36,935 nt of DNA. Origin: Woeseiaceae bacterium (GTDB lineage: Bacteria > Pseudomonadota > Gammaproteobacteria > Steroidobacterales > Woeseiaceae). Below, piece by piece: positions 16,815 through 35,610 of the stretch. The stretch's first letter is position 1; every line of letters begins with the position of its first letter. The DNA lies in the NCBI GenBank assembly GCA_030066735.1, contig JASJBB010000040.1, forward strand, positions 1 through 36,935, given 5' to 3'. The notes beneath the pieces are model-generated. The model did no database searches and had not been told where the DNA came from. It saw nothing but the letters and a program-made list of their open reading frames with translations. The translations under genes were made by a program, and so were the position numbers.

Positions 16815-17522
16815 CTACGTTGCGTCAGAGCTGGCGAGCAGCACCGGCCGATCGTCAACCGCGAATACGCCCTGCGCGGGCAGCCAGCGACGGACTTCGG
16901 TTGCAGCAGGTGAAGTATCGACGGTTGCCAGGCCGAGGAAGCCGTCATCCAGGGCGTACAGCCGCAACGCGGCTACTGGCGCCGAATCGTCCAACAGCCG
17001 CACATGCGGCGGCTCCACGATACAGCGCAGCTGGTCGAGCCCGCCGGCGATGCCGATGCCCGTGGCCTTCAGCCATGCTTCCTTGAGCACCCACAGCCTG
17101 TAAAAGTGATCGGAATCCCGGGCCGCGAGCCATTCGGCTTCATCCCGTGAAAAATAGCGCTCTGCGATGCCCGACGTATTGCGAGGCCGGCCGGGAAATT
17201 CGACGTCGATACCGACCTGATCGGCATCCATCACGGCGCAGGCGACGATGTCGCCGCTATGCGAGATGCTGATCGCCGGGCCGTCCACGCATATCGGCTT
17301 GCCGCGCTCATCGGCGATCAGCTCGAAAGACGCTGCGGGCTGGCCGGTGTGATCGGCGAGAAGGGCGCGCAGCATCGCGCGCGACGCAACGTACTGCCGC
17401 CGGCGCAGGCCAGACTGGTAACGGCCCGCCTGCTCGCGTTCCTGTGGCTGGATAGCATCGTCGGTAACGGCCGCCAGGTCGGTGTTCGTCGCCCAGGCGA
17501 CGCGCAAGGTCGCTCGTGTCAT
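16815..17522 (-). CDS. 4'-phosphopantetheinyl transferase, Sfp type
   Basis: Transfers phosphopantetheine from CoA to the conserved serine of carrier proteins. The 235-aa protein shows the Sfp-family motifs in order: GKP (residues 74-76), ISISHSG (84-90), GIDVE (104-108, Mg-binding acidic residues) and WVLKEAWLK (144-152). It is the last gene of the leftward pigment operon, 18 nt after the deiodinase-like gene, so its natural targets are probably the two acyl carrier proteins encoded at 23270 and 32166. Sfp-type transferases are regular members of aryl polyene loci. Confidence 0.95.
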   Translation of the reverse strand: MTRATLRVAWATNTDLAAVTDDAIQPQEREQAGRYQSGLRRRQYVASRAMLRALLADHTGQPAASFELIADERGKPICVDGPAISISHSGDIVACAVMDADQVGIDVEFPGRPRNTSGIAERYFSRDEAEWLAARDSDHFYRLWVLKEAWLKATGIGIAGGLDQLRCIVEPPHVRLLDDSAPVAALRLYALDDGFLGLATVDTSPAATEVRRWLPAQGVFAVDDRPVLLASSDAT

Positions 17523-17540
17523 AACTGGTCCTGCAACGCC

Positions 17541-18176
17541 CTATTCGGCCAGCAACGTGTCGAGTACTTCGCGAATCTCCCGCGGGTCGACCCACGGTTG
17601 CCGCAGGCGAATGATACCGTGAACGTCAACGACATAGGCGGCGGACGGCGCCGCGCCGTATTGCCGCCACACGCTATTGTCCATGGCGTCCACGAGGAAT
17701 CGGGATTGCAGCTCCATGGCCTCGAAAGCCAGCGAGGCCTGGCGCTGGCGGTCTTCGGCTGACTTGTGTTCCTCGACGTTCACGCCGACGGCCTTGTTGA
17801 TCACCGGGTTCCAGATGCGATCCTCGTACGGATTGATGGCGTCGACCGGGTGCGCTTCCTGCGTGTACACGACGACGAAGTCGACGCGTCCGGCGTAATC
17901 GCGCTGCAGTGCCTGCACGTCGAACCGCCGGTAGCGAAACACCGGGCAGGAATAGCTGCCGAGTTGGATGACGACGGGTCTGTCGCCGACGAGATCGGAG
18001 AGCTGCACGACGTCGCCGTCGATATCGGTCAGCGTGAACCCGGGCGCGGGTTCGGACTCCCGCGGCGCCGTCGCGTCATAGTGCGACAGGGATTCGCCGG
18101 CTTCGGTCGGAAACAGCAGCGAACACGCCGGCTGGGTGGCGCAGGTCAACAGAACAAGTACGAAGCGGACAGCCAT
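17541..18176 (-). CDS. Iodothyronine deiodinase-like redoxin, exported
   Basis: A 211-aa protein with a hydrophobic N-terminal signal (about residues 1-20; a lipoprotein Cys at 12 or 18 is possible but the lipobox is poor) and a thioredoxin-fold domain. PGFTLTDIDGDVVQLSDLVG (residues 45-64) is redoxin-like. The active site QLGSYSCPVFR (71-81) and VVVYTQEAHPVD (101-112) are the two signatures of the deiodinase family, with C77 where animal enzymes have selenocysteine. There is no CxxC motif. Bacterial homologues are common and mostly uncharacterised, so dehalogenation is not established. Here it is inside the pigment operon, 52 nt after the ketosynthase and 18 nt before the phosphopantetheinyl transferase, next to halogenase genes. 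That suggests a role in halogen or redox handling of the product; a generic peroxiredoxin-like role is the alternative. Confidence 0.85.
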   Translation of the reverse strand: MAVRFVLVLLTCATQPACSLLFPTEAGESLSHYDATAPRESEPAPGFTLTDIDGDVVQLSDLVGDRPVVIQLGSYSCPVFRYRRFDVQALQRDYAGRVDFVVVYTQEAHPVDAINPYEDRIWNPVINKAVGVNVEEHKSAEDRQRQASLAFEAMELQSRFLVDAMDNSVWRQYGAAPSAAYVVDVHGIIRLRQPWVDPREIREVLDTLLAE

Positions 18177-18228
18177 ACCGGTTGGAGCCGGCCACCGTGC
18201 ATTTAGTTTCGCGGGATTACGGCCGCAG

Positions 18229-19458
18229 TTACGGATGGCGCCGCATGATCAGCGACGTGTTGATGCCACCGAACGCGAAGTTGTTGTTCATCACGTACTC
18301 GGTATCGACTTCGCGGCCGTTGCCGCGGATGTAATCGAGCGCCGCGCACTCGGGATCGACGTTCTCGAGATTGATGGTCGGCGCAAACCAGCCGCGGTTC
18401 ATCATCTCGACGGCCAGCCAGGTTTCAAGGGCGCCGCAGGCACCGAGCGTGTGCCCCATGTAACTCTTGAGCGAGCTAACCGGGACCGAGTCGCCCAGCA
18501 CGCGCTCGGTCGCGTGCGATTCGGCAATATCGCCGCGGTCCGTTGCGGTGCCATGGGCGCTGACATAGCCGATCGCGCCGGGCTCCAGTCCGGCGTCGGC
18601 CAGCGCCATTTCCATGACGCGCTGCATCATGGGCGAGGATGGCTGGGTGACGTGCTCGCCGTCGGCATTCGTGTCGAAGCCGACGATCTCGGCGTAGATG
18701 GCGGCGCCGCGGGCCAGCGCGTGGTCGCGATTCTCGAGAATCAGCGTGCAGGCGCCTTCACCGATCACCAGGCCGTCCCGATCCGCGTCGAAAGGCCGCG
18801 GCGATCGCTCCGGCGTGTCGTTCAGGGTGCTCGTGGCGTACAGCGTGTCGAACACGGCCGCCTCGGTCGGGCACAGCTCTTCCGCGCCGCCCGCCACCAT
18901 GACGTCCTGCGAGCCGTCACGGATGGTTTCGAACGCGTAGCCAATGCCCTGGCTCCCCGACGTGCAGGCGCTGGACGTCGTGATAACGCGCCCCTTGAGG
19001 CCGAAGAATACGCCGATGTTCACGGGAGTCGTGTGGCCCATCATGCGGATGTAGGTCGTGGCGGTAATGCCGTCGAGCGACTTGGTGAGCAGCATGTTGG
19101 CGAAATCGGTGATCGCCTGGGTGCTGCCGGTCGACGAGCCGTAAGCGACGCCCACCCGTCCGGACTGCAACAGCGGGTCGCCAAGCAGCCCGGCATCTGT
19201 CAGGGCGCGCTCACTTGCTGCGGTCGCGAGCATCGCGACCCTGCCCATGCTCCGCGTGCGCTTGCGAGTAAAGCTCGCCGGCAGCTCGAAGTCGGTAACC
19301 GGCGCGCCGAGCTTGGTATTGAGCCCGTCGTATTCCTCCCACTCGGGGATGTGGCTGACGCCGTTTTTGAGTGCGCGCAGGTTCGCCTCGATCGTGGCCC
19401 AGTCGTTGCCGATGGGCGAGTAAGCGCCAACGCCGGTGATTACGACTCGATTCGTCAA
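18229..19458 (-). CDS. apeR: Beta-ketoacyl-ACP synthase, FabF-like (ApeR type)
   Basis: A condensing enzyme of the aryl polyene pathway. The 409-aa protein (from TTG at 19458; a GTG at 19461 is one codon earlier) has the full Cys-His-His set: C165 in SSACTSGSQ, H302 in SAHGTATDRGD, and K331/H336 in KSYMGHTLGACG. The TTG overlaps the stop of the upstream ketoreductase (TTGA) and is preceded by GGGGGA, so coupling is likely. The frame is open further upstream to 19518, but that would overlap the ketoreductase by 64 nt and adds no conserved residues. Aryl polyene loci use a KS/CLF heterodimer plus a separate FabF-like KS; this is the separate one, since the partner pair lies at 24412-26404. Confidence 0.92.
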   Translation of the reverse strand: MTNRVVITGVGAYSPIGNDWATIEANLRALKNGVSHIPEWEEYDGLNTKLGAPVTDFELPASFTRKRTRSMGRVAMLATAASERALTDAGLLGDPLLQSGRVGVAYGSSTGSTQAITDFANMLLTKSLDGITATTYIRMMGHTTPVNIGVFFGLKGRVITTSSACTSGSQGIGYAFETIRDGSQDVMVAGGAEELCPTEAAVFDTLYATSTLNDTPERSPRPFDADRDGLVIGEGACTLILENRDHALARGAAIYAEIVGFDTNADGEHVTQPSSPMMQRVMEMALADAGLEPGAIGYVSAHGTATDRGDIAESHATERVLGDSVPVSSLKSYMGHTLGACGALETWLAVEMMNRGWFAPTINLENVDPECAALDYIRGNGREVDTEYVMNNNFAFGGINTSLIMRRHP

Positions 19459-20189
19459 CACAGTCCCCCGTTGATGGAAATGACCTGGCGCGTAATGTAA
19501 CCCGCATCGGGGGAGCACAGGAACGCAACCAGCGCCGCGACCTCATCCGCCTGGCCGATGCGGCGCAGCGGGATCGCTTCGAGCATCTGGTCGAGCGGCA
19601 GCTCGTCGGTCATGTCCGATTCGATGAGGCCGGGAGCAACGCAATTGACCGTGATCTGGCGCTTGGCCAGCTCGATCGCCAGCGCCTTGGTCGCGCCGAT
19701 GATGCCGGCCTTCGAGGCGCTGTAATTGACCTGGCCACGGTTGCCCATCAGTCCCGATACCGACGAAATGGTGACAATCCGTCCGGGTTTGCGGCGCCGC
19801 AGCATCGGCATCACGATCGGGTGCAGGACGTTATAGAGGCCGTTGAGGTTGACGTCGATGACGCGGTTCCAGTCATCCTCGCCCAGCATCGGGAACGGGC
19901 CGTCTTTGGTCATGCCGGCATTGCAGACCGCGCCGTAATAGGCGCCGTTCTCCGCAATGTCCTGTTCCAGGACGCCGCGGGTTTCTTCGGCGTTACTGAC
20001 GTCGAATGACATCAGGCGGCAGTTGCCGCCAGCGTCCTCGATCGCGGCACGGGTCGCCTCACCGCCATCCTTGTTGCGGCCGTAATGGGCGGCGATGGCG
20101 TATCCATCCTCGGCCAGGCGCAGCGCAATCGCCCTGCCGATGCCGGAACTCGTTCCGGTGACCAATATGCTCGACTGTTCGTTATTCAT
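19455..20189 (-). CDS. apeQ: 3-oxoacyl-ACP reductase, FabG-like (ApeQ type)
   Basis: An NADPH-dependent ketoreductase of the short-chain dehydrogenase family, 244 aa from the ATG at 20189 (an in-frame upstream start at 20234 would run back into the dehydratase gene). Motifs: TGTSSGIGRA cofactor loop (about residues 11-20), CNAGMT, the catalytic Ser in ISSVSG, and Y-x-x-x-K in YSASKAG. The C-terminus ITRQVISINGGLC is FabG-like. It reduces the beta-keto intermediate in each polyene extension cycle. It overlaps the dehydratase upstream by 8 nt and the ketosynthase downstream by 4 nt. Confidence 0.93.
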   Translation of the reverse strand: MNNEQSSILVTGTSSGIGRAIALRLAEDGYAIAAHYGRNKDGGEATRAAIEDAGGNCRLMSFDVSNAEETRGVLEQDIAENGAYYGAVCNAGMTKDGPFPMLGEDDWNRVIDVNLNGLYNVLHPIVMPMLRRRKPGRIVTISSVSGLMGNRGQVNYSASKAGIIGATKALAIELAKRQITVNCVAPGLIESDMTDELPLDQMLEAIPLRRIGQADEVAALVAFLCSPDAGYITRQVISINGGLC

Positions 20190-20655
20190 CGGTTTCTTCC
20201 GGCGTCTCGAAGACCGCCAGGTTGGCCTCTGCAATGATAGTGCCTGCCGCCTCTATGCGGCAGGCGAACGACCCCATGCCCTGCGAGTCGCGAACCAGTT
20301 CCTGGCACCCGGCCTTGAAGCGTCCGCCGACCTCGAAGTAAGGCACCCGGCATTCATAGTTGCGGGTGCCGAGCAGCAGGCCTAGCGGAGGGTTCACGCC
20401 GCGTACATTGGCTCGCGCGCCCGAATGGACGGCGACGCATTGTGCCATATACTCGATGCCGGCATAACCGGGCACCCCTTTTCCGGGAACGACGAGCGGG
20501 AAGTCCTCGCGCACCTGCCACTGGCACTCGGCGAACTCCGGGCCGATGGCGGTAAGCCGGTCCAGGAACAGCATGGGCTCGCGGTGCAGCACGAACCGGT
20601 CGGCCGTCGAGCCGACCAGCTGCTGCAGCGCGCTGCTGAACGCCTGCTCGTTCAT
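20182..20655 (-). CDS. apeP: 3-hydroxyacyl-ACP dehydratase, ApeP type
   Basis: A hotdog-fold dehydratase of 157 aa. H24 in LHREPMLFLDRL matches the FabZ catalytic His (HR.P.L..D), and E68 in YAGIEYMAQCVAVHSG matches the catalytic Glu on the central helix. The 'GIEYMAQ' wording is typical of the ApeP/COG4706 group in aryl polyene loci. The ATG at 20655 overlaps the thioesterase stop by ATGA; the frame is open to 20979, but that part is antiparallel coding shadow. Together with the ApeI-type enzyme at 22805 it should dehydrate the beta-hydroxy intermediates to give the conjugated double bonds. Confidence 0.9.
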   Translation of the reverse strand: MNEQAFSSALQQLVGSTADRFVLHREPMLFLDRLTAIGPEFAECQWQVREDFPLVVPGKGVPGYAGIEYMAQCVAVHSGARANVRGVNPPLGLLLGTRNYECRVPYFEVGGRFKAGCQELVRDSQGMGSFACRIEAAGTIIAEANLAVFETPEETDE

Positions 20656-21104
20656 TTGTCGCCCAGCCCGGCCTCCTCGAGGCGGCGCGCGACGTTGTCT
20701 ATCAGCAATTGCGGCGACCCGAGCACCAGTTCGTGCGTTTCGGCATCCACGGGCACCTGGATCGTCCTCGCCTTGGTCGTGAGGACGCCGGCCGCATCTT
20801 CGATCTTGTAGTCGACCACGAGCCGTAGTTCCCACTCTCGCAGGCACGCCGTCACGCGCACGGCCTGGTTCAGGAGCAGGGGCCTGACGTAACGCACCTC
20901 GGTATCGGCGACTGGCCAGAGGTATCCCGACGCCTCCATCTCCTCGTAGCTGTAGTCGAAGCCCTCGAACAGGGCGCAACGCGCCAGCTCGAAGTACTGG
21001 AAGTAGCGGCCATGCCAGGCAACGCCGGCCGGATCGAGGTCGAAAAAAGGGATCTGCACGTCCACGGCAGCCGTGAGGCAGTTCGAGAAATCAGTCTTGA
21101 TCAT
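20652..21104 (-). CDS. Acyl-ACP/CoA thioesterase, 4HBT (YbgC/FadM-like) hotdog protein
   Basis: A 150-aa single-hotdog thioesterase. The FFDLDPAGVAWHGRYFQYFE segment (residues 20-39) is the hallmark of 4HBT enzymes, with the aspartate before the P-x-G-x-x-x-x-x-x-Y-F pattern acting as catalyst. In aryl polyene loci such an enzyme may release or proofread chains on the carrier protein. Its first 14 nt overlap the end of the LpxL-like acyltransferase and its end overlaps the ApeP-type dehydratase by 4 nt, so it is an integral part of this operon. Confidence 0.88.
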   Translation of the reverse strand: MIKTDFSNCLTAAVDVQIPFFDLDPAGVAWHGRYFQYFELARCALFEGFDYSYEEMEASGYLWPVADTEVRYVRPLLLNQAVRVTACLREWELRLVVDYKIEDAAGVLTTKARTIQVPVDAETHELVLGSPQLLIDNVARRLEEAGLGDK

Positions 21105-22065
21105 CGGTTCCGTCGTCGCCGGCCACGGACGAGTGGGTCTGGCTTGCCCAGAAGTCGTAGAAATTGAACCACTGCAGCGGGGCTCTTTTAACCTGGGCTT
21201 CGAGCGCCGCTGCGAACTTCTGGGCTTGGGGTTCGTAGTTGCGCTGCCGGTCCTTTCTCGACGTGGCTATTTCCTCCGCGAGTAACTCTACACGAAGCCG
21301 GTACATGCCGGACTCGAAAAAGCAGTGCATGACGTAGACCGGGCAGCGCAGCAGGTTGCCCAGCACGTAGGGGCCGATCGGAAAATTGGCCTCGTCGCCG
21401 AAAAACTCCGCCGGGCAGACGTTGTCGCTGAGACCGACGGGAACGCGGTCTCCCGCGATCAGCAGCCATTCGCCGTTATCGAGCCGCTCCTTCAGCCGCA
21501 ACGCCAGGTCGAGGTCGAGATCCGTAACCTGGATCAGGTTGAGCCGGGTTTTGGCTGCCGCATCGCCGAGCAGTTTCGCAAAGTTGGCCGCGTGCCGGTC
21601 GTAGACGAGTACGTTGATGGTGAGGTCCGGATGGCGTAAGGAAATCCCCCTCGAGTACTCGAGACAGCCGAAGTGAGAACCGACCACGACAATCCCCTGG
21701 CGCGCTTCGATGACGGGCCAGATCAGGTCCGCTTCCTGCTGGCGTACGTCAATCTGCGTCGGCTCGCCGGTCCAGGCGATGTACTTGTCGAGCAGCGAGC
21801 GGCCGAAGGCCAGGAAATGCCGAAACGTCATCCACAGGCCGGGTTCGCCGCGCAGACTGTCCGGGTATTCGCGCTTGACCCGGCGCAGGAAGTCCAGCGA
21901 CGCGCGGCGCGCGATGGGGCGGCGCAGCAGGAAGTAGAACATGACCGGCGCCAGCACGATATTGAAGCCGGCGCGGCCCAGCAGCCGATACGTCCAGGCC
22001 ATGAACCGCAGGCCGGCCAGCGCGCCGGCTTCGCCGATCGACGCCCAATGCCGGCTCTTGCTCAC
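21091..22065 (-). CDS. LpxL/HtrB-like lysophospholipid acyltransferase
   Basis: A 324-aa membrane-associated acyltransferase from a GTG at 22065 that overlaps the glycosyltransferase stop (GTGA). The frame stays open to 22902, but that stretch is shadow of the glycosyltransferase gene. It has a hydrophobic segment (about residues 33-48, FNIVLAPVMFYFLLRR) and the HX4E catalytic motif HFGCLE (H131/E136) of the LpxL family, followed by a GDRVPVG segment (about residue 225). In aryl polyene and xanthomonadin loci, an acyltransferase of this class next to a GT2 is thought to join the polyene to a lipid or sugar carrier. The acyl donor here is presumably polyenoyl-ACP; this is inference. Confidence 0.9.
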   Translation of the reverse strand: MSKSRHWASIGEAGALAGLRFMAWTYRLLGRAGFNIVLAPVMFYFLLRRPIARRASLDFLRRVKREYPDSLRGEPGLWMTFRHFLAFGRSLLDKYIAWTGEPTQIDVRQQEADLIWPVIEARQGIVVVGSHFGCLEYSRGISLRHPDLTINVLVYDRHAANFAKLLGDAAAKTRLNLIQVTDLDLDLALRLKERLDNGEWLLIAGDRVPVGLSDNVCPAEFFGDEANFPIGPYVLGNLLRCPVYVMHCFFESGMYRLRVELLAEEIATSRKDRQRNYEPQAQKFAAALEAQVKRAPLQWFNFYDFWASQTHSSVAGDDGTDDQD

Positions 22066-22808
22066 GATTGCCGGCTCTGCATTTTGCGCCACAGGAGCAA
22101 CGGCAGGCGGAGCAGCATCCCGAAGACCAGCCGGATGTGCATCCAGGAGATAATCGCGTTGTCGCGCAGGTAATGAAAGTGCGAGGCGCCGTCGTCGGGA
22201 TAGCGGACCTTGACCGGCGTGTAGTGAACAGGAATGCCCTCCCAGGACGCGCGTACGAGCAGCTCCGGGTCGAACGCCATTCGCGAGCCGGGCGCCTGCT
22301 TTCTGATCAGCGCGACGACCGGGCCCGTGGGATACACGCGGAAGCCGCACATGGCGTCGCGGATCTCGGTGCTCAGCGTCTCGAGCCAGACGAGCGAGTG
22401 CGTGAGATAGCGGCCGTAGTAGCGCAGCTTCGAGATGGTCTCGTCGAAAACCGGCTGGCCGCAGATGATGGCGTCCGGGTGCTGCGCCGCCATCTCGCGC
22501 AACGCATCGATATAGGCAACATCGTGCTGGCCGTCCGCATCGATCTGCAGTGCGTGCGTGAACCCCGCGTCGAGCGCCGTAAACAAACCCGTTGTCACGG
22601 CGCCACCCTTGCCCTGGTTCTCCTCGTGCCGCACGAGCGTGATCTCGCCGCCGCTCTCGTCGATCAGGCGCTCGAGTTCCTGCAGAGCTTCGGGCGGGCT
22701 CGAGTCGTCGACGATCACCATGGGCAGGCCGGTATCCAGCAGCGACGGCAGCAGCCGGCGGAACTGCGCGACGTGATCGTAGTGCGGCACCACGAGGCAA
22801 AGTCTCAC
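22062..22808 (-). CDS. Glycosyltransferase family 2 (dolichol-phosphate-mannose-synthase-like)
   Basis: A 248-aa GT-A fold enzyme. The nucleotide-binding aspartates are in VIVDDSSPP (about residues 31-39) and the metal-binding DxD is in QIDADGQHD (88-96), with a conserved GKGGA (67-70 region) just before. The C-terminus (LVFGMLLRLPLLLWRKM) is hydrophobic and may touch the membrane. The start is a GTG overlapping the ApeI-type dehydratase stop. In this locus it probably adds a sugar to the lipid headgroup that carries the pigment; the sugar is not predictable. In some aryl polyene loci this activity is fused to the adjoining acyltransferase; here they are separate but overlapping genes. Confidence 0.9.
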   Translation of the reverse strand: MRLCLVVPHYDHVAQFRRLLPSLLDTGLPMVIVDDSSPPEALQELERLIDESGGEITLVRHEENQGKGGAVTTGLFTALDAGFTHALQIDADGQHDVAYIDALREMAAQHPDAIICGQPVFDETISKLRYYGRYLTHSLVWLETLSTEIRDAMCGFRVYPTGPVVALIRKQAPGSRMAFDPELLVRASWEGIPVHYTPVKVRYPDDGASHFHYLRDNAIISWMHIRLVFGMLLRLPLLLWRKMQSRQS

Positions 22809-23215
22809 CGCCCTGGCTCCGGGAAGACCAGCCTGCCCTGCGAATGTTGCAGGTCCTCGCCCTCGATTTGAAACTGGACGTCACGCGCGCCGTGCCTCGC
22901 AAGCGTGAGCTCGATGACTCGCGGCGGAACTATGATGTTGCTGAACTTCAGCCGCTTGACGTGTTGCGGCGGCCCTTCGAGGCCGAACAGGATCGATGCC
23001 ACTTCGGCCGCCCAGTGCAGCTGGATGATGCCGGGCAGCACCGGTTCTCCGGGAAAGTGCCCTTCGAACCACGACAGCTCCGGCGACACGTCCAGGCGCA
23101 GCGTTACCTGGCTGTCATTTTCGTCGATAGCGATGATGCGCGGGAAGTCGCCGCTGACCTGCGCCGACAGTCGCCCGGGGTCCCGAATGAACCGCTTCAG
23201 CGAGGAATCCTGCAT
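22805..23215 (-). CDS. apeI: 3-hydroxyacyl-ACP dehydratase, ApeI type
   Basis: A 136-aa hotdog dehydratase. The FabZ/FabA-like active-site loop FEGHFPGEPVLPGIIQLHW (residues 50-68) holds the catalytic H53. The Glu seen in FabZ is not present at the expected place; Q65 and H67 occupy this region, as in the divergent ApeI subfamily, so the second catalytic residue may differ. It sits between the carrier protein (54 nt upstream) and the glycosyltransferase (4-nt GTGA overlap). It likely works with the ApeP-type enzyme on alternate cycles or as a complex partner. Confidence 0.87.
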   Translation of the reverse strand: MQDSSLKRFIRDPGRLSAQVSGDFPRIIAIDENDSQVTLRLDVSPELSWFEGHFPGEPVLPGIIQLHWAAEVASILFGLEGPPQHVKRLKFSNIIVPPRVIELTLARHGARDVQFQIEGEDLQHSQGRLVFPEPGR

Positions 23216-23506: not shown

Positions 23507-23560
23507 GGCCGCAATTCTAAGAGAGATGTTTTCCAAACGCGATAGAAATTGCGGCCGGAA

Positions 23561-24325: not shown

Positions 24326-24411
24326 AGCGGGGGAGTTCGGCTTATTCTACACAAATGAACCTCACGCGCCGTTCCACGGTGGCGAGGCACTCACAGGGAA
24401 ATCTGACTCAC
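24326..24411. promoter_or_regulatory. Divergent promoter region of pigment units A and B
   Basis: The 86 bp between the PlsC-like start (24325, minus) and the preferred ketosynthase start (24412, plus) must drive 11 leftward and 3 rightward genes. A TAGAAT on the minus strand (24345-24350) is a possible -10 for unit A. I could not place -35 boxes. If the ketosynthase starts at its first ATG (24355) the gap is only 29 bp, too small for two promoters, which supports the later start. Confidence 0.4.
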
Positions 24412-26404: not shown

Positions 26405-26405
26405 C

Positions 26406-27974: not shown

Positions 27975-30243
27975 CGCGGCGCGAAATCCGGCGGCTGCCG
28001 CCCCAGGCGATCGCAAAACTCGCGAGCGAGCCGGTTGCGACGGTCAGGCCGAGGAACTTGAGCACCGGAATCGACGATGCGGCCAGTATCGTGAAAGCGA
28101 CCGTTGTCGAAGCCGCGCAGGCGAGCACGCCAGTGTCCGTCGCCCGTCGTTCCCCGGCCGGCTCCGAGCGGCTCAGGAACAGCGCGTAATCGAGCCCGAG
28201 TCCCAGCACCAGGAGCAGGGCGACCATGTGGATGACGGTCAGGCTGCCGTGCACGACGCCGATGATGGCGACCGTAACGAGCAGCGATGCGGTCACGGTC
28301 AGCCCGGTCCAGAGAGTCTGGAACAGCCGGCCGCGCACCCACCAGAGCAGGCCGACGATCACTATTGCCGCCATGAGGATGGTGCGTAACGCCGTGTTGC
28401 GGTAGTCCCGCATCAGGTCGAGCGAGGCGTTCTGAAAATCGACCAGGTCCGCCGCTACGTCGTGCGCCGCGATGTGCCGGGCTAGCGCGTCAGGTTGTAC
28501 CTGCACGAGGGACGTCAGCGCCACCCAGCGGTCATCGAGCTGCACCAGGTGAGCGTCCAGCCAGGCGCGGAGCGGCGAGTCTTCGATCGCCGCCGCGGTG
28601 AGAATCGGCGCGGCGCGCGCTGCCTCCGCCGCGTCCAGGAAAGCGTCGAAGGCGTCGGCGCGAAACGGCGTGTCTGCGACCGCGGCCGCGACGCGGGCGG
28701 CAAGCACGTCGCGCTCGGGAATCATGGCCTGGCGCGAGGCCTGGGAGCGCTCGCTGGGCAGGATCCGGGTCACGGACTGCCAGCCGTCGAGAATCCCCTT
28801 GCCGACCGCGTCGGCCAGAATCGCATCCATGGCTTCGCTGTTGCGCAGCAGCTGCTCGAGCGAGTCGGCGCGCAACGTCAGCTGGTAGCGGAGATCCGCG
28901 GTGACGGCGGCCGATCGCAGCACCTGGTCGGCCTGCAGCCGGTCGCCGGCAACCGGGCTGAGGCTGGACAGGTTGTCATCCCATAGTCCCGTCTCGAAGC
29001 GCGGCCAGGCGACGGCCACGGCAAGCACGAGGGCGCCGGCCGCGACCGCGAGCGACAGCCGGGGCGCCGCGGGCCGGTCGGCCCCGGCCGCCTGCTCCCG
29101 GCCTCCGGGGAGCAGGTGCGGCAACCAGGTTCGCGTTGCCAGGCTGGCGGTGATGACACCGACGGCCGTGAATACACCGAGTTGCGCCAGCCCTGTCGAG
29201 TTGGAGAACACGAGAGCAAGGTAGGCGATCACCGTACTGGCCGCGCCGAGGCGCATCGTGGGCCAGATGCGCTGCATCGCGGACACGCCCGAGTCGTGCC
29301 GGGCATGACTGAAGAGGTGTAACGGGTAGTCGATCGCGACGCCCAGCAGCGTGAACCCGAATGCCAGCGTGATGCCGTGTACGGTCTCGAACAGCACCGC
29401 GACGGTCGTCAGCCCGGCAAGGAACCCGGTCAACAGCGGCAGTGCCGCAAGGAACAGCATGCGAACGTTGCGAAAGACGGCATACAGGACGAGCAGCAGG
29501 GCGAAGCTGGCCAATACGCTGCGCAGCGTCGCCTCGGCGCGGATCGTCTCCTGCAGTTCGACACTGAATGCGCCGACCCCGGTGACGTCGAGTGTCAGCG
29601 CGTCACTACCCGGTAATGCGCGGAAGGCAGTTTGAACGGCATCGACGGCGCCCGCCTGGGCAGCAATGTCGATCGAGGCGGCCGTTGTCTCGGCCAGCAG
29701 CACCGCACTGCCGTTGGCCGCAACCCACGGGTCGCCGCCGAGTTCGGCCGGCGCGAGCGATTCGAGCACGTCGAGCGTGGCCAGGTAAGGGTCGCGTGAG
29801 ACCAGCTCGAGCAGCTCCGCGCCGCCGCCGAAAGACAGGTCGCGCAGGCGCTCCTCGATGGCGCCGCGCAGCCCTCCGGCACTGAAGTCGAGTTCGTCCA
29901 TGACCAGGTAATAGTCGCTGACCGGGAACGGCACATCGGTTGCCTGCTCGTCGAATTCCCCATTGAGCACCGACACGAACCCGGGATTGCCAGCCAGCTC
30001 CTGTTGCAGGAGGCGCGCGGCCTCGACGGCATTGCCGGTCTCGCCGGCGCCAATGCCGACAACGAGCAGCCTCGAGGCGGGGCCGTTGCGAACCTGTTCG
30101 ATCAGAACTTCGTGGGCGAGGGTGGTGTGACGGGGAAAGAACGCGCTCAGGTCGAAACTGAGTTGCAGCCGGGTGAGCAGGATGACCAGGGCGACCCCGA
30201 TAGCGCCGGCCCACCAGAGCGAGCGTTGCATTGCGACGGACAC
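27967..30243 (-). CDS. MMPL/RND-family lipid-pigment exporter
   Basis: A 758-aa inner-membrane protein with the RND/MMPL layout: one N-terminal helix (about residues 9-27), a large periplasmic loop, a block of five helices, a second loop, and a second helix block near the C-terminus. Typical MMPL segments are GFTLLGVAIDYPLHLFSH (acidic residue in the first helix block) and LLLVLGLGLDYALFLSRSEP (second block), both carrying the proton-relay Asp. Aryl polyene and xanthomonadin loci always include such an exporter; in Xanthomonas a member of this locus is linked to outer-membrane localisation of the pigment. The start is a GTG at 30243 or an ATG at 30231. It converges with halogenase-like protein 1, their stops overlapping by 8 nt. 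Confidence 0.93.
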   Translation of the reverse strand: MSVAMQRSLWWAGAIGVALVILLTRLQLSFDLSAFFPRHTTLAHEVLIEQVRNGPASRLLVVGIGAGETGNAVEAARLLQQELAGNPGFVSVLNGEFDEQATDVPFPVSDYYLVMDELDFSAGGLRGAIEERLRDLSFGGGAELLELVSRDPYLATLDVLESLAPAELGGDPWVAANGSAVLLAETTAASIDIAAQAGAVDAVQTAFRALPGSDALTLDVTGVGAFSVELQETIRAEATLRSVLASFALLLVLYAVFRNVRMLFLAALPLLTGFLAGLTTVAVLFETVHGITLAFGFTLLGVAIDYPLHLFSHARHDSGVSAMQRIWPTMRLGAASTVIAYLALVFSNSTGLAQLGVFTAVGVITASLATRTWLPHLLPGGREQAAGADRPAAPRLSLAVAAGALVLAVAVAWPRFETGLWDDNLSSLSPVAGDRLQADQVLRSAAVTADLRYQLTLRADSLEQLLRNSEAMDAILADAVGKGILDGWQSVTRILPSERSQASRQAMIPERDVLAARVAAAVADTPFRADAFDAFLDAAEAARAAPILTAAAIEDSPLRAWLDAHLVQLDDRWVALTSLVQVQPDALARHIAAHDVAADLVDFQNASLDLMRDYRNTALRTILMAAIVIVGLLWWVRGRLFQTLWTGLTVTASLLVTVAIIGVVHGSLTVIHMVALLLVLGLGLDYALFLSRSEPAGERRATDTGVLACAASTTVAFTILAASSIPVLKFLGLTVATGSLASFAIAWGGSRRISRRVS

Positions 30244-30253
30244 GTACGACGCC

Positions 30254-30862
30254 CTACGGAGACAGGTCGTTGCCGATCTGCATCTGGTGCCACTCGTCGT
30301 TCGGCAGGCTGATCCTGATGCCGGTAACGGCCTGTTCGTTGCCCGTGACCTCGATCGAAGACAGGCGCCTGGCCACGGCTTTCGCGAGGGGCGTCATCTG
30401 CAGCGACCATGCGTCTGCGGAGCCGGACACATCGCACCGGAAAGCCGCTTCCAACTGCGCCTGGTCGCCGGCCAGCACAGCCTCGATGGCGCCGAGAATG
30501 GTCTTCAGCGCGCGGCTGCGGTTCAGCGACAGCTTGCGGGTCTTGCCGTCCCGCGTGACGATCACGCGATCGTCCGCGACGAGGATGTCCTCCTCGAACG
30601 GCGCCTCGACGACCTTGCGCAGCACGCCGGCATCGAGGTATTCGAGCCGCCCCGCCAGCACCATGGGCTCCTTGAACATCGGGTTGTTGCGCTCTTCGCG
30701 GAAACCGATTTCGGCAGGCGGCTGCACGGCGGCGCCGGCCAGGATCGATTGCAGGTCGGCTGGCCACGCCGGCGCACAGGCGACGAACGTCACCAGCGTC
30801 GCAAGCAGCGCACGGGTGCTCAGTATCCCGGGGCTAGGAAGAGCTGTCGGCTGGCTCGCCAT
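30254..30862 (-). CDS. LolA-like outer-membrane lipid carrier protein
   Basis: A 202-aa exported protein with a signal sequence (about residues 14-36, ending APAWPADL) and a LolA-like half-barrel. FREERNNPMFKEPMVLAGRLEYL (about 54-76) matches the strand pattern of LolA-related proteins in aryl polyene loci. It is next to the MMPL exporter (10-nt gap) and overlaps the AMP-ligase end by 29 nt. The inferred role is to accept the lipidated pigment in the periplasm and pass it to the outer membrane. The N-terminal 12 residues before the signal core are unusual, so the true start may lie slightly downstream. Confidence 0.85.
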   Translation of the reverse strand: MASQPTALPSPGILSTRALLATLVTFVACAPAWPADLQSILAGAAVQPPAEIGFREERNNPMFKEPMVLAGRLEYLDAGVLRKVVEAPFEEDILVADDRVIVTRDGKTRKLSLNRSRALKTILGAIEAVLAGDQAQLEAAFRCDVSGSADAWSLQMTPLAKAVARRLSSIEVTGNEQAVTGIRISLPNDEWHQMQIGNDLSP

Positions 30863-32147
30863 TTTTATCTACGGTGGCTCTTAGCGACTCGTACAGGTCG
30901 AGAACCATCTTCCGCGCCAGCTTGCCGGTTTCCTGCCGCGGCAACATCGGCACGAGGTACATGGGGCGCGGCAGGAAGGCGGGATCGATAGCCTCTTTCA
31001 GGTTGTCCAGAATAGCAGACGGTTCGATACCCGGCGCGACCACGAGGGCGGCCAGCCGCCTGCTGTCTTCGCTCGGCAGGAAAAACACCCCGTCGACGAC
31101 GCCCGGTATGCGCGTCAGCCGGTGATTGAGGTGGGCGAGGGAACCGCGTTTACCGGCGATGTTGATCATGTCCTGGTCGCGGCCCAGCCAGCGGAAGCGG
31201 GAGTCACCCACCAGTTCGATGACGTCGCCGAGAATGACAGGCTCCGGCAGGTGCGGCGCGCTGACCCTCGTTTTTTCATCGAGAATCTCGAACCGGAACG
31301 GCGCCGCGATAGTCCACAGCGTTTCAGTTGCCGTTGCTCGCGACGCCAGCGACCCGGCCTCGCTGCAGCCGAAGACTTCGTTGACCCGGGCGCCGAAACC
31401 GGACTCGAGGTCCGCGGCGAGCTGCTGTGACATCGGCGCCGTCGCACTGAGGACATAGTCGATGTCGATGCCGTCGATCCCGGCCGCCAGCAGCGATTCG
31501 AGATGGATGGGCGAGGAGACAATCACCCGCGGGCGCGGCAACTGTTCGAGCGCGTTCGCTATGTCCTGCGGGAACAGCGGCGTTTCGCTGCTGATCGCGA
31601 TGTCGGCAAACAGTGGCAACTGGATCGACGTTTCGAGTCCCCAGTTGTGTTGCGGCGGCACGGTGGCCAGCATGTTGACTCGCGCGTTGCCGAGCCCATA
31701 GCTGACCTGGTTGGCCAGCGCGCCGCCGCGAACCGTCTCCCAGTACTTCGGGTGGCCGGTCGATTCGCCCGTGCTTCCCGAGGTAAAAACGATCGCCACG
31801 AGTTGCCCGGCGCCGATCTCGGGTATCGCCGTTGCGGCTGCGGCCGTCGCGACGTCGGTATCTTCGAAAATGTAACTGTCCGGGTACTCGCCGGCGATGT
31901 CACGCACGGTCTCGCGTTGCCGGTTCGGCGGCAGCAGGGTGCATTGGCCCGCGACGATCGCGGCGCAGAAGCCGAGCAGGAACGTGTAGCGGTTCGTCGC
32001 AAGGTTGATGACATAACGATGCCGGGGCAGCGTTTCGGCCAGCGTTGCGACCTGGCCCAGGAATTCGTCGACGCGGATCCCGGCCCCGCCGGTGCAGGCG
32101 ATGACGTCGTCCAGCCTGCGGGTCGTAAGCGGGTATGAGGCGTTCAA
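30834..32147 (-). CDS. AMP-dependent ligase for aromatic starter (ANL superfamily)
   Basis: A 437-aa adenylate-forming enzyme. A phosphate loop FTSGSTGESTGHPK (residues 121-134), GCSEAG (about residue 260), RDQDMINIAGKRGS (about 338-351) and a C-terminal lysine in RQETGKLARK (about 411) give the full ANL set. Compared with the usual TSGTTGxPK, the loop has an insertion before HPK. It starts at a TTG (32147), 18 nt after the ACP gene. In xanthomonadin and aryl polyene loci this enzyme activates hydroxybenzoate and loads it on the carrier protein. The chorismatase in the divergent unit would supply that acid. The acid specificity cannot be read from sequence. Confidence 0.92.
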   Translation of the reverse strand: MNASYPLTTRRLDDVIACTGGAGIRVDEFLGQVATLAETLPRHRYVINLATNRYTFLLGFCAAIVAGQCTLLPPNRQRETVRDIAGEYPDSYIFEDTDVATAAAATAIPEIGAGQLVAIVFTSGSTGESTGHPKYWETVRGGALANQVSYGLGNARVNMLATVPPQHNWGLETSIQLPLFADIAISSETPLFPQDIANALEQLPRPRVIVSSPIHLESLLAAGIDGIDIDYVLSATAPMSQQLAADLESGFGARVNEVFGCSEAGSLASRATATETLWTIAAPFRFEILDEKTRVSAPHLPEPVILGDVIELVGDSRFRWLGRDQDMINIAGKRGSLAHLNHRLTRIPGVVDGVFFLPSEDSRRLAALVVAPGIEPSAILDNLKEAIDPAFLPRPMYLVPMLPRQETGKLARKMVLDLYESLRATVDKNGEPADSSS

Positions 32148-32165: not shown

Positions 32166-32432
32166 TTAGGGCGCGTTCTCGGATACGTAAGCGCTGAGGC
32201 TGCCGAGCGAACCGAACACTTCCTGTACGTTCGCGTCGTCGGCTTTGAGCTGCACCGAGTACTTCTGGGAGATGGCCAGCGCGAGCTCGAGGGCGTCAAT
32301 GGAATCGAGGCCCAGGCCCTCGCCGAACAGCGCATCGTCCGGGTCGATATCGGCCGCGCCGATATCCTCGAGATTCAATGACTCGACGATCAGCTGCGCA
32401 ACTTCCTGTTCAAAATCAGACTGGGGCCGCAT
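32166..32432 (-). CDS. Acyl carrier protein (pigment unit C)
   Basis: An 88-aa acidic carrier protein. S44 in GLGLDSIDALELALAI is the phosphopantetheine site; the preceding DPDDALFGEGLG loop is typical of standalone ACPs. It is first gene of unit C, directly before the AMP-ligase, which suggests it receives the activated aryl starter. It is clearly different from the ACP at 23270 (ELDSIDAVDL), so the two are not recent duplicates. Its start is an ATG, with a spacing of 97 bp to the divergent halogenase start. Confidence 0.93.
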   Translation of the reverse strand: MRPQSDFEQEVAQLIVESLNLEDIGAADIDPDDALFGEGLGLDSIDALELALAISQKYSVQLKADDANVQEVFGSLGSLSAYVSENAP

Positions 32433-32504: not shown

Positions 32505-32529
32505 ATACACGCCCTCAGCCGGCTCGGCA

Positions 32530-33843
32530 ATGACGATCAACAAGACAGATATCCTAATTATCGGTGGCGGCCCCGCCGGCTCGACGTTCGGCAACCTGGC
32601 CGCCCAGCAGGGCTGGCAGGTCACGCTGTTTGAGAAAGATTCGCATCCCCGATTCCACATCGGGGAATCGCTGCTGCCGATGACCATGCCGATCGTCGAT
32701 CGGCTCGGTCTGCGCGAGGAACTGGAAGAAATCGGCGTGCGCAAGCTCGGTGCGGATTTCACGACGTTCCGCGGCGGCGCCTACCACCATACCTACCCGT
32801 TTGCGCGGGCCCTTGGCGACAGTCCCGACCACGCGTTCCAGGTGCGGCGGTCCGAGTTCGACCAGATGCTGTTCGAGGGGTCGCGGCGCGCCGGCGTTGA
32901 CGCCCGCGAGCAAGTGACCGTTACCCGGGTCGACCGGCTCGAGAGCGGCGATCACCGGGTAACGGCCGTGGACGCCGACGGGCAGGAGTCAGTGTGGCAG
33001 ACACGCTTCCTGGTCGACGCCTCGGGACGCGATACGTTCCTGTCCGGCAAGAACAACTGGAAGCACCGCAATCCGCGTCACGCCAGCGCGGCCGTATTCG
33101 CGCACTACCGCGGAGTCAAGCGCCGGGCCGACGAGCGCGAGGGCGACATCAGCATTTACTGGTTCGAGCATGGCTGGGTTTGGATGATCCCGCTGCAGAA
33201 CGACATCATGAGCATCGGCGCTGTGTGTGACCCTGAGTACATCAAGTCGCGCAGCGGTTCCCTCGACGAGTTTCTGCTCAAGACCGTCAACAGCATGATC
33301 GGCGTCCGTGCGCGCATTCGCGACGCCGAACAGGACCGGCCGGCGCAGGCGACCGGCAATTATTCGTACCTGTCGAATCGCATGATGGGCGACGGTTTCC
33401 TGATGATCGGCGACGCGTTTGCGTTCGTGGACCCGGTGTTCTCGAGCGGGGTGCACCTGGCGATGAGCAGCGCGGAGCGCGGCATCGACGTCGCGCGTAC
33501 CTGGCTCGACGGCGACCGGCGCGCTTACAAGAAGGCATGCCGCCGCTACGAGCGCATCACGCGCCGGGGACTCGAGACGTTTGCGTGGTTCATCTACCGG
33601 TTCCGCACACCGACAATGTCGTACCTGTTCAGTAACCCGAAAAACTCGTTCCGGCTCGTCGAGGGCGTCGTCTCGATGTTGGCCGGCGACGTGTTTACGA
33701 ACAGGGCGGTGCGCCGGCGGCTGATCATGTTCAAGGGCGTGTACGCGTTCGTGACCTTGCTGATGCGACTGGGTGTGATCGACGCAACCAGTGGGTCGCG
33801 TCCGCGGCGGCGGCCAGAAGCCGGAAGCATGGTGAGTGGGTAA
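32530..33843 (+). CDS. Flavin-dependent halogenase 2
   Basis: A 437-aa FAD-dependent enzyme. The N-terminal GGGPAGS (residues 12-18) binds FAD, followed by HIGESLLPMTMP (43-54) as in pyrrole/phenol-type halogenases. K72 (in VRKLGADF) sits at the conserved halogenase lysine position, and WVWMIP (216-221) fits WxWxIP. GDAFAFVDPVFSSGVHLAMS is the second flavin contact. All these support real halogenase activity on a carrier-bound or free phenol. Xanthomonadins are brominated, which makes this the best candidate for ring or chain bromination; chlorine is equally possible. It is first gene of unit D and overlaps the chorismatase start by 8 nt, tying halogenation to starter supply. A TTG-rich palindromic promoter precedes it. 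Confidence 0.92.
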   Translation: MTINKTDILIIGGGPAGSTFGNLAAQQGWQVTLFEKDSHPRFHIGESLLPMTMPIVDRLGLREELEEIGVRKLGADFTTFRGGAYHHTYPFARALGDSPDHAFQVRRSEFDQMLFEGSRRAGVDAREQVTVTRVDRLESGDHRVTAVDADGQESVWQTRFLVDASGRDTFLSGKNNWKHRNPRHASAAVFAHYRGVKRRADEREGDISIYWFEHGWVWMIPLQNDIMSIGAVCDPEYIKSRSGSLDEFLLKTVNSMIGVRARIRDAEQDRPAQATGNYSYLSNRMMGDGFLMIGDAFAFVDPVFSSGVHLAMSSAERGIDVARTWLDGDRRAYKKACRRYERITRRGLETFAWFIYRFRTPTMSYLFSNPKNSFRLVEGVVSMLAGDVFTNRAVRRRLIMFKGVYAFVTLLMRLGVIDATSGSRPRRRPEAGSMVSG

Positions 33844-34873
33844 CTCGGCGCCGATAGACCGCAGCGCGTTCCCGGCTGCGAGCAGCAATAGCCTGCGCAT
33901 AACGCTGACACCCGCCGTGCCGGCGACGCCGCCGGACAGCAACCTGTTGCTCGCGTTTCACTTCGGCCGCGGCGCCGCCGGCGCCGAGACGCCCGGTGTC
34001 GTCAATACCGGTATCGACCCGATCCTGCAGGACGACCTCCACGAATGCTGGTGGTACGAAGGGCCGGTCGAGCACCGTCAGGTGGGCAATGCGCGTATCG
34101 CCGAGTGCGGCGATTTCGCCGTAGTGATCATGCAGGTTGCCGACGCAGGGCCTGCCGATTTTCGCGCCGTGACCTGCGGGCTCTACGAGGAGCTGCTCGA
34201 CGCGGTTGGCGTGACCGCGCACCGCAACATTGTCCGCTTCTGGAACTACTTCAGCGACATCAACCTGGGCGAGGGGGACGACGAGAAGTACCGCCAGTTC
34301 TCGATCGGCAGGGCCGAGGCGTTCGAGGGGCGCGGTCTGATCGATGAGGCCGTGCCGGCCGCCACGGCGATCGGCAGCGTCAGGGACTGCGACTTCACGG
34401 TTATCGCCCTCGCATCGAAGCACGAGTTTCACAACGTGGAAAACCCACGCCAGGTCAGCGCCTACCGCTACCCGCGGAACTACGGGCCGCGCAGTCCCAA
34501 GTTCAGCCGGGCCGGCTGTGTGCGTGTTGACGACCAGCAGCTGTTGCTGATTTCAGGCACGGCCGCAATTATCGGGCACGAGTCCATGCATGCCGGCGAC
34601 GTCCGGCTGCAGTGCGAAGAAACGCTGAACAACCTGCGCAAGCTGAGCGAGGCGGTAGCCGAGGTTGGCAGCGTCGATGCGGACGCCGTTCTGGATGGCG
34701 GGAGCGTCGCCAGGGTGTACCTGCGGCATGCGGCAGACGTCGACGACGTAAGGCGCCGGGTCGAGGAATTCCTCGGTGGCCGCCCGGAGTCCGTGGCCTA
34801 TCTCAATGCGCACATCTGCCGGCGCGAGCTGCAAATAGAAATCGACGCTGCGACACTGGTCGGGCCGGCCTGA
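33836..34873 (+). CDS. xanB2: Chorismatase, XanB2/FkbO/Hyg5 family (hydroxybenzoate synthase)
   Basis: Converts chorismate to a hydroxybenzoate or dihydroxycyclohexadiene product. The 345-aa length and fold match XanB2/FkbO. Conserved segments are HRNIVRFWNYFSDINLGEGD (about residues 129-148), YRQFSIGRAEAF, RYPRNYGPRSPKFSRAG (about 214-230), the core LLISGTAAIIGHESMHAGD (about 238-256) and the C-terminal AYLNAHICRRELQIEID that carries the catalytic-site Glu. In Xanthomonas XanB2 makes 3- and 4-hydroxybenzoate, the former being the xanthomonadin starter and the latter a ubiquinone precursor. The GTG start overlaps the halogenase stop by 8 nt and has GGAAG 8 nt upstream. FkbO-type or Hyg5-type product outcomes differ by few residues, so the exact product is not certain. 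Confidence 0.92.
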   Translation: MGNSAPIDRSAFPAASSNSLRITLTPAVPATPPDSNLLLAFHFGRGAAGAETPGVVNTGIDPILQDDLHECWWYEGPVEHRQVGNARIAECGDFAVVIMQVADAGPADFRAVTCGLYEELLDAVGVTAHRNIVRFWNYFSDINLGEGDDEKYRQFSIGRAEAFEGRGLIDEAVPAATAIGSVRDCDFTVIALASKHEFHNVENPRQVSAYRYPRNYGPRSPKFSRAGCVRVDDQQLLLISGTAAIIGHESMHAGDVRLQCEETLNNLRKLSEAVAEVGSVDADAVLDGGSVARVYLRHAADVDDVRRRVEEFLGGRPESVAYLNAHICRRELQIEIDAATLVGPA

Positions 34874-35610
34874 TGCGGCGCTGGTGGCTCGGCGCGATCG
34901 TTTTCATCGCGCTTGACGGGCTCGCCCAGGAACCGCGGCCCGGCCTGCAAATGCTCGTCTATGGCGCGACCGGCAACATCGGTACCCACATCGTCGACGA
35001 GGCGCTGGCGCGGGGACACTTCGTAACCGCGGTGTCCCGCGACCCGTCGCGGATCGAAAAGCAGCACCCGAACCTGACTGCGGTTGCCGGCAACCTGCTG
35101 GATCCCGCCAGCGTCCGCGCGCTGCTGGCCGGCAAGGATGTCGTGGTCACGTCGGTGCGCGGAGTGATCGGCGACGACAAGGACCCGAAAAATTCGCTGC
35201 AATACCTCGCCGTCGTTGCCGTGGTCGAGCAGCTTCGCGCTCTCGGCGATGAGGCGGGCCGGCTCATCCATGTCGGTGGCGCTGGCTCACTGGAGATCGG
35301 GGACGGCAGGCTCTACGCCGACAAGCTGCCGAAACTGTTCCTGCCCAAGGGGCTCGAACTCGAAATCCAGGGCCAGATTCTCGCGCTGGAATACCTGCGG
35401 GCCGCCAGCGACGTCCGGTGGACCTACGCCACGCCGCCGAAGAACTTCACCAACGGCGATCGGACCGGGAATTTCCGCGTCGGCGCAGACGAACTCATGG
35501 AAGACGAGCGTGGCAGGAGCCGCCTATCGCGCGCCGATTTCGCCGTCGCCGTCCTCGACGAGGCCGAACTCGAAATCCACACCGGCCGGCGTTTCTCTGT
35601 CGCCTACTGA
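34873..35610 (+). CDS. NmrA-like NAD(P)-binding Rossmann protein with signal peptide
   Basis: A 245-aa protein of the atypical SDR/NmrA group. GATGNIG (residues 31-37) is the dinucleotide loop and LIHVGGAGSLE (about 127-137) is shared with NAD(P)H-binding reductases of this type. Before the fold are 26 residues that look like an export signal (RRWWLGAIVFIALDGLAQ), with an RR pair that only loosely fits a Tat motif. Its ATG shares the last base of the chorismatase stop (TGATG), which supports this start. An internal ATG at 34951 would give a cytoplasmic form, but it has no ribosome site. It is last gene of unit D and converges with the deacylase, overlapping it by 7 nt. The substrate is unknown. 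Confidence 0.85.
   Translation: MRRWWLGAIVFIALDGLAQEPRPGLQMLVYGATGNIGTHIVDEALARGHFVTAVSRDPSRIEKQHPNLTAVAGNLLDPASVRALLAGKDVVVTSVRGVIGDDKDPKNSLQYLAVVAVVEQLRALGDEAGRLIHVGGAGSLEIGDGRLYADKLPKLFLPKGLELEIQGQILALEYLRAASDVRWTYATPPKNFTNGDRTGNFRVGADELMEDERGRSRLSRADFAVAVLDEAELEIHTGRRFSVAY

What the first reader, a model, noticed from the sequence alone, without database searches (positions are those of the whole stretch)
16815..35610. Complete xanthomonadin-type halogenated aryl polyene locus in four transcription units
All expected functions are present: chorismatase starter supply, AMP-ligase, two ACPs, KS+CLF, a third KS, ketoreductase, two dehydratases, thioesterase, two acyltransferases, GT2, LolA-like carrier, MMPL exporter and Sfp-type transferase, plus two flavin halogenase-like genes. 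Known from the family: xanthomonadins are brominated aryl polyenes built on 3-hydroxybenzoate. The locus lacks the ammonia-lyase and the methyltransferase of some other aryl polyene clusters. The product should be a membrane-bound, probably halogenated yellow pigment with protection against light and oxidants (inference).
Basis: partly seen in the sequence, partly recalled or inferred. Interest (0 to 1): 0.85.

Follow-up and report, generated by a model that had tools for sequence, protein, structure and literature searches.

The report
Halogenated-pigment locus with deiodinase-like gene
A marine-sediment type of bacterium carries the genes for a xanthomonadin-like, probably halogenated yellow membrane pigment, and among them sits a gene resembling the animal thyroid-hormone deiodinase, which gives the bacterial members of that enzyme family a testable candidate substrate.

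Summary
All named functions are present in four strand blocks. The main ketosynthase falls in the aryl-polyene clade. Both halogenase-like genes keep flavin-halogenase motifs and lie in separate clades. The conserved block is at least 15584-35610.

ORF 17541-18176 (-) is in the iodothyronine deiodinase family (PF00837, 2e-20). Its closest solved structures, by sequence and by fold, are mouse DIO3 and DIO2. Cys replaces Sec; the published proton-relay positions are kept, one as Ser for Thr. A leader suggests export. Of 9 pigment loci in 73 genus genomes, 4 carry it, all beside the PPTase gene; 3 lack it, 2 are cut short. No other member this close (64% or more) was found in the genomes searched. 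No paper in the searched library joins aryl polyenes and deiodinases.

Mechanism is inferred: reductive dehalogenation of the pigment or a precursor (about 0.3), or a one-Cys peroxidase (about 0.4).

The parts
15584..16027 (+). exported 147-aa protein, no Pfam or NCBIfam match; weak YbjQ/DUF74-like fold
   Evidence: Aligned with 8 relatives from pigment loci; AlphaFold pLDDT 86.3; Foldseek best 1vr4/3qkb/1y2i, E 0.003-0.01, none <= 0.001
16031..16759 (-). alpha/beta hydrolase
   Evidence: Pfam; 57-83% in relatives
16815..17522 (-). Sfp-type phosphopantetheinyl transferase
   Evidence: PF01648 4.2e-15; one of two ACPS-family hits in the genome
17541..18176 (-). iodothyronine-deiodinase-family protein with export leader, Cys at the Sec position
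18229..19461 (-). ApeR-type ketosynthase (KSc)
   Evidence: NF006587 715.9 bits over cut-off 470; groups with the E. coli counterpart
19455..20189 (-). ketoreductase (FabG2-like)
   Evidence: TIGR01831 361.1 bits over cut-off
20182..20655 (-). ApeP-like dehydratase
   Evidence: PF22817 7.6e-14
20652..21104 (-). 4HBT thioesterase
   Evidence: PF13279 3.3e-12
21091..22065 (-). lipid-A-type (LPLAT) acyltransferase
   Evidence: PF03279 8.7e-9
22062..22808 (-). glycosyltransferase family 2
   Evidence: PF00535 5.2e-14
22805..23215 (-). ApeI-like dehydratase
   Evidence: PF22818 1.6e-9
23270..23536 (-). acyl carrier protein (ACPa)
   Evidence: NF003757 114.6 bits over cut-off
23561..24325 (-). PlsC-like acyltransferase
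   Evidence: PF01553 4.1e-14
24355..25599 (+). aryl-polyene ketosynthase (KS)
   Evidence: NF006618 485.6 bits over cut-off 407; tree
25592..26404 (+). half-size chain length factor
   Evidence: PF13723 2.6e-25
26406..27974 (+). flavin-dependent halogenase-like HalA
   Evidence: PF04820 3.3e-13; WVWIIP, FADPFYSPG
27967..30243 (-). MMPL exporter
   Evidence: PF03176 2.6e-14
30254..30862 (-). LolA-like carrier
   Evidence: PF19574 2.3e-21
30834..32147 (-). AMP-ligase
   Evidence: PF00501 5.8e-10
32166..32432 (-). acyl carrier protein (ACPb)
   Evidence: PF00550 3.8e-10
32530..33843 (+). flavin-dependent halogenase-like HalB
   Evidence: PF04820 1.2e-30; PDB best 5buk 2.4e-54; WVWMIP, FVDPVFSSG
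33836..34873 (+). FkbO/Hyg5-family chorismatase
   Evidence: PF21168 1.2e-26; TIGR04444 199.7 bits, below its cut-off 325
34873..35610 (+). NAD(P)-binding (NmrA/SDR) protein with N-terminal signal-like segment
   Evidence: PF13460 1.2e-25; signal-like N-termini in orthologues by eye

Best explanation
The block 15584-35610 is a xanthomonadin-type aryl-polyene pigment locus of a Woeseiaceae-like gammaproteobacterium. Likely route (family knowledge, not shown here): the chorismatase makes 3-hydroxybenzoate; the AMP-ligase loads it on an ACP; KS-CLF extends it with the ketoreductase and two dehydratases; the flavin enzymes HalB and HalA halogenate ring and/or chain; thioesterase, acyltransferases and GT2 place it on a lipid; MMPL and LolA-like proteins carry it to the outer membrane; the PPTase activates the ACPs. 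Added to this core in part of the lineage is a deiodinase-family protein with a Cys in place of selenocysteine and an export leader. Its site (one redox Cys plus the deiodinase proton relay) and likely envelope location fit an enzyme that attacks the halogenated pigment or a precursor by thiol-based reductive dehalogenation, removing or recycling halogen. Locus identity and family membership of the extra gene are supported by results, and the confidence given is for these; its reaction and substrate are inference (about 0.3).
Against: The deiodinase gene is dispensable: absent from the locus in L055 (the nearest relative), L065 and G236, which keep both halogenases, and no PF00837 match was found anywhere in those genomes. 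In G178 and G056 an opposite-strand ORF lies between KSc and the deiodinase, so co-transcription with KSc is not kept; adjacency to the PPTase is. PF00837 as a whole is not enriched with pigment loci in the order (7 shared genomes, 4.2 expected, P 0.10). In the order nine more PF00837 genes exceed 60 bits, none of them in a pigment locus, and none of the 16 other deiodinase regions fetched (of 20) had a HalA/HalB hit. None of the four leaders has Leu at -3 of the candidate lipid-anchor Cys, so lipidation is unsure. Cys deiodinases are expected to be weaker than Sec ones (recalled). The fold also resembles ResA and one-Cys peroxiredoxins. DIO3 Phe258 aligns with Pro177. The halogen is unknown.
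Confidence: 0.85

Rival explanations
1. The deiodinase-like protein is a one-Cys thiol peroxidase or thiol reductase that protects the envelope or the pigment from oxidants and never touches halogens.
For: Thioredoxin/peroxiredoxin fold with good matches to AhpE and ResA; export leader; white Lysobacter mutants are more sensitive to light and H2O2 (PMC3691225 abstract passage); PMC1088965 suggests a redox role for bacterial deiodinase-like proteins (passage).
Against: Sequence and fold rank DIO2/DIO3 above every peroxiredoxin or thioredoxin listed; the deiodinase relay positions are invariant in 4 of 4.
Confidence: 0.4
2. The deiodinase gene is a neighbour without a role in the pigment, for example a hitchhiker next to the PPTase gene.
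For: Absent in 3 of 7 loci where that end is covered, with a clean KSc-PPTase junction in L055 and L065; opposite-strand ORF between KSc and the gene in two of four carriers.
Against: 4 of 4 members at 64% identity or more lie in this locus; as conserved as core genes (72% in G178, against KS 75% and PPTase 49%); purifying selection.
Confidence: 0.25
3. The two halogenase-like flavoproteins do not halogenate here (hydroxylases or silent), so the pigment is a plain aryl polyene.
For: HalA scores only 67.7 bits against its best PDB match, CmlS; NCBIfam hits of both genes fall under their cut-offs and include monooxygenases.
Against: Both keep GxGxxG, WxWxIP and FxxPxxSxG; HalB matches halogenases 5buk, ChlB4 and PltA strongly; the HalA clade includes Xanthomonadales aryl-polyene loci.
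Confidence: 0.12

Closest known systems
Xanthomonadin locus (Xanthomonas, Lysobacter)
   Same: KS with half-size CLF, XanB2-type chorismatase, KR, dehydratases, acyltransferase, LolA-like carrier; halogenase genes near KS-CLF in Xanthomonas and others (PMC3691225 passages).
   Different: Here a second halogenase type (HalB), an ApeR-type KS, a thioesterase, a deiodinase-family gene and an NAD(P)-binding protein are present; the passages read do not name these for Lysobacter.
Arcuflavin locus of Azoarcus BH72
   Same: ArcB chorismatase next to a halogenase gene (ArcA), KS plus N-terminal-KS protein, AMP-ligase, LolA, exporter (PMC3949708 table, passage).
   Different: Arcuflavin genes lie in separate clusters and include a methyltransferase and dialkylresorcinol genes; none seen among the 24 ORFs scanned here.
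E. coli aryl polyene locus
   Same: CLF (240 aa), LPLAT, two ACPs, AMP-ligase, ApeI, GT2, thioesterase, LolA, MMPL, KS, ApeP, FabG2 KR and a second KS (L179 annotation); ApeP-KR-second KS order shared. The names ApeO and ApeR for its two KS are recalled.
   Different: E. coli has a methyltransferase and a DUF3261 gene; its annotation shows no halogenase, chorismatase, PPTase or deiodinase in that locus.
Vertebrate iodothyronine deiodinases (PF00837)
   Same: Fold, relay residues, N-terminal membrane-targeting segment.
   Different: Cys instead of Sec, loop D 8-11 residues longer, Pro177 at DIO3 Phe258, export leader instead of a eukaryotic anchor, no thyroid hormone expected.
Bmp8 debrominase (bmp pathway)
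   Same: A cysteine-based reductive debrominase inside a bacterial bromination pathway (PMC5577590, PMC7918430 passages).
   Different: Carboxymuconolactone-decarboxylase homologue that acts on a bromopyrrole; a functional parallel only.

Membership tests
Aryl polyene (APE) biosynthetic loci | KS placed in the aryl-polyene KS clade | tested here: met
   33-row KS group 100/100 with the E. coli APE KS, own FabF outside
Aryl polyene (APE) biosynthetic loci | Type II set: KS, CLF, KR, two DH, ACPs, AMP-ligase, TE, LolA, MMPL | tested here: met
   compared with E. coli L179
Aryl polyene (APE) biosynthetic loci | Produces an aryl polyene pigment | not testable with these tools
   Needs expression and chemistry
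Xanthomonadin-type subgroup | Chorismatase for 3-hydroxybenzoate in the locus | tested here: met
   PF21168 1.2e-26; product type cannot be told from sequence alone (PMC3949708 passage)
Xanthomonadin-type subgroup | Half-size CLF directly next to KS | tested here: met
   270 aa, PF13723, overlapping the KS stop; half size by itself is shared with E. coli (240 aa)
Xanthomonadin-type subgroup | Halogenase of the Xanthomonadales clade beside KS-CLF | tested here: met
   HalA groups with Luteibacter, Lysobacter and Dokdonella loci; no named Xanthomonas sequence was in the tree
Xanthomonadin-type subgroup | Brominated product | not testable with these tools
   Isotope pattern needed
Iodothyronine deiodinase family (PF00837) | Family profile above curated cut-off | tested here: met
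   73.6 bits, cut-off 27
Iodothyronine deiodinase family (PF00837) | Deiodinase relay: Ser, Thr, Tyr, Glu, His, His | tested here: met
   S74, S76 (Ser for Thr), Y104, E107, H109, H137 invariant in 4 of 4
Iodothyronine deiodinase family (PF00837) | Catalytic selenocysteine (animal deiodinases) | tested here: not met
   Cys77 (TGC) in its place; Cys members exist in bacteria (PMC1088965 passage). So: family member, not an animal-type selenoenzyme
Iodothyronine deiodinase family (PF00837) | Reductive dehalogenation activity | not testable with these tools
   Needs enzyme assay
NCBIfam NF038285 deiodinase family protein | Score above curated cut-off 250 | tested here: not met
   106.9 bits

The most novel reading that the evidence does not exclude
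The extra protein is a Cys-type, deiodinase-fold reductive dehalogenase working on the halogenated aryl polyene or its bromophenol-like starter: a bacterial counterpart of thyroid deiodinases whose natural substrate is a halogenated pigment, tuning or recycling halogens put on by HalA and HalB.
Probability: 0.25. Interest if true: 0.8.

Novelty: new variant of a known kind. Interest (0 to 1): 0.5.

Why it matters
The pigment locus by itself is a new member of a well-described class. The added gene matters because bacterial deiodinase-like proteins were reported in 2005 without a known function (PMC1088965, passages), and a 2026 review still lists them among selenoproteins found by bioinformatics (PMC13188914, passages, the last one cut off at the words 'biological functions remain largely'). 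A deiodinase-family gene lying in one locus with two halogenase genes names a candidate substrate class and makes the question directly testable. It would also give a second kind of protein, after Bmp8, for thiol-based dehalogenation inside a bacterial halogenation pathway.

Tried and rejected
Considered and dropped: that the match is only a generic thioredoxin (sequence and fold rank DIO2/DIO3 first); that deiodinases in general travel with pigment loci (no enrichment; 0 of the 75 loci outside the Woeseiaceae-type four matched by tblastn at E 1e-5, flanks 10 kb at most and many cut by contig ends); that the gene was clearly a recent arrival in the window's lineage (identities 71, 71 and 64% to three orthologues roughly follow the KS order; two losses, or a loss and a regain, remain open). 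The class-wide profile search gave weak matches in 58 of 368 other genomes, best 66 bits, none close to this subfamily. A first KS tree had one outgroup row in a wrong frame; repeated correctly. In the first tblastn table the KSc query was out of frame, so its KSc column is not used; repeated. Two halogenase rows (L135, L138) were left out of the tree as duplicates of L056 and L057; only ORFs over 330 aa and 60 bits were used. The unknown 147-aa protein gave no fold match at E <= 0.001. Paper searches without use: one paper, on a Dictyostelium dechlorinase, listing only; three, listing only.
Full report
What is there. The window is one whole contig (C136, 36,935 bases) of a 3.34-Mb, 85%-complete genome. 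The nearest named loci are metagenome bins labelled Woeseiaceae (L055 at 86% in KS, L065 at 79%, L057 at 70%), so a Woeseiaceae-like gammaproteobacterium is inferred; marine-sediment life is recalled for that family. The blocks are: minus strand 24325 to 16031 (PlsC, ACPa, ApeI, GT2, LPLAT, thioesterase, ApeP, KR, ApeR-type KS, deiodinase-like, PPTase, hydrolase); plus 24355-27974 (KS, CLF, HalA); minus 32432 to 27967 (ACPb, AMP-ligase, LolA, MMPL); plus 32530-35610 (HalB, chorismatase, NAD(P)-binding protein). An exported protein of unknown function at 15584-16027 also keeps company with pigment loci.

Is it an aryl polyene locus? Yes. In a tree of 51 ketosynthases the window KS is in a 33-row group (100/100) with Xanthomonadales, Burkholderia and Methylococcaceae loci and the E. 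coli aryl-polyene KS; the genome's own FabF is outside. The second KS groups with the second KS of the E. coli locus (15-row group, 100/100). I call the two E. coli genes ApeO and ApeR from recall; the record names them only beta-ketoacyl synthases. The E. coli locus, reached by DNA similarity (808 of 5,426 genomes) and read with its annotation, shares CLF, LPLAT, two ACPs, AMP-ligase, ApeI, GT2, thioesterase, LolA, MMPL, both KS, ApeP and KR. Its annotation shows no halogenase, chorismatase, PPTase or deiodinase, and has a methyltransferase and a DUF3261 gene. Its CLF is also half-size (240 aa), so half size alone does not mark the xanthomonadin type; the chorismatase and the HalA-type halogenase beside KS-CLF do (PMC3691225, PMC3949708, passages). 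The locus therefore joins the two published gene sets. Outside the Woeseiaceae-type loci, L067, L090, L132, L144 and L147 also show KSc, CLF and a HalA- or HalB-type gene.

Halogenases. HalA-type and HalB-type rows form two separate groups in a 58-row tree (26 and 32 rows, 100/100; labels were set by best BLAST match). All 26 HalA-type rows keep WxWxIP and FxxPxxSxG; of the 32 HalB-type rows 29 keep WxWxIP and all keep FxxPxxSxG. HalB's best solved relatives are 5buk (Mpy16 by recall), ChlB4 and, further down, PltA, known (recalled) for carrier-bound substrates, and it lies beside the chorismatase; HalA lies beside KS-CLF. A division of labour, starter ring versus growing chain, is a guess from position. 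Both at 40% identity or more occur in the seven Woeseiaceae-type loci that cover both places (window, L055, L056, L057, L065, G056, G236) and in L090; many other loci are cut by contig ends.

Distribution. In 73 genomes of the genus the pigment KS is present at 65% or more in 9, and in a tenth at 39%. PF00837 matches occur in 10 genomes; only four exceed 60 bits, and those four are the orthologues in the pigment locus. Of the nine loci, four carry the gene (window, G178, G109, G056), three lack it with that end covered (L055, which by contig coordinates is G266; L065, likewise G254; G236), and two contigs stop short (G192, G216), with no orthologue found elsewhere in those genomes. In L055 and L065 the PPTase start follows the KSc stop within 20 bases. 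In G178 and G056 a small opposite-strand ORF lies between KSc and the deiodinase. None of 75 loci from other groups had a hit. In the order (246 genomes) nine further PF00837 genes exceed 60 bits, but none lies near pigment genes in the stretches fetched, and the seven of them that were aligned are 26-35% identical to the window protein. A class-wide search of 369 genomes found no further close member. dN/dS is 0.13-0.27 with dS of 1.05-1.72, which suggests purifying selection.

What it may do. Shown: family, fold, active-site set, adjacency, constraint. Inferred: envelope location, and use of C77 to attack halogen on an aryl ring in the way DIO selenolate takes iodine (described in PMC11592359). 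Recalled: xanthomonadin's ring bromine sits beside the ring oxygen, the ortho-halophenol pattern deiodinases act on. Against: the gene can be missing while both halogenases stay, other PF00837 genes show no tie to halogenases, and the same fold serves peroxidases. I put dehalogenation at about 0.3 and a thiol peroxidase at about 0.4.

Novelty. Full-text searches for 'iodothyronine deiodinase' or 'deiodinase' with 'aryl polyene' found 0 papers; 'deiodinase' with 'biosynthetic gene cluster' found 3, which by title and abstract opening are on other subjects; 'Woeseia' with 'aryl polyene' found 1, a Microbulbifer genome paper (listing only). Most subscription papers are missing from that library. 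The pigment locus is a new member of a known class; with the deiodinase-family gene it is a new variant.

Noticed in passing
window 15584-16027 (+); L055, L129, L133, L134, L137, L139, L142, L145: Exported protein of unknown function that recurs beside aryl-polyene loci of different groups; model resembles YbjQ/DUF74 and, more weakly, IgaA and RcsF periplasmic domains.
   Followed up: partly
window about 34873-35610 (+) and orthologues in L055, L065, L135, L136, L138: NAD(P)-binding (NmrA-type) protein with signal-peptide-like N-terminus in the orthologues, odd for a nucleotide-dependent enzyme (by eye). No match was found in the G236 region.
   Followed up: partly
L002/L150 (G045), L003/L148 (G034), L004/L149 (G020): Deiodinase-family genes with one in-frame TGA at the catalytic position (apparent selenoproteins) in another family of the same order, not near a pigment locus.
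   Followed up: partly
L134 about 13129-13542 (+), L137 about 4762-5259 (-): Small exported protein on the opposite strand between KSc and the deiodinase gene in G178 and G056, absent from the window, where the gap is 52 bases.
   Followed up: no
L082 6635-9979: A Nitrospirales-labelled bin with two tandem HalA-like genes and a HalB-type gene in one aryl-polyene locus.
   Followed up: no
window 5441-12292: By reading of the translations, a galactose block: galactokinase, uridylyltransferase, beta-galactosidase and sodium-solute symporter; no family search was run on these.
   Followed up: no
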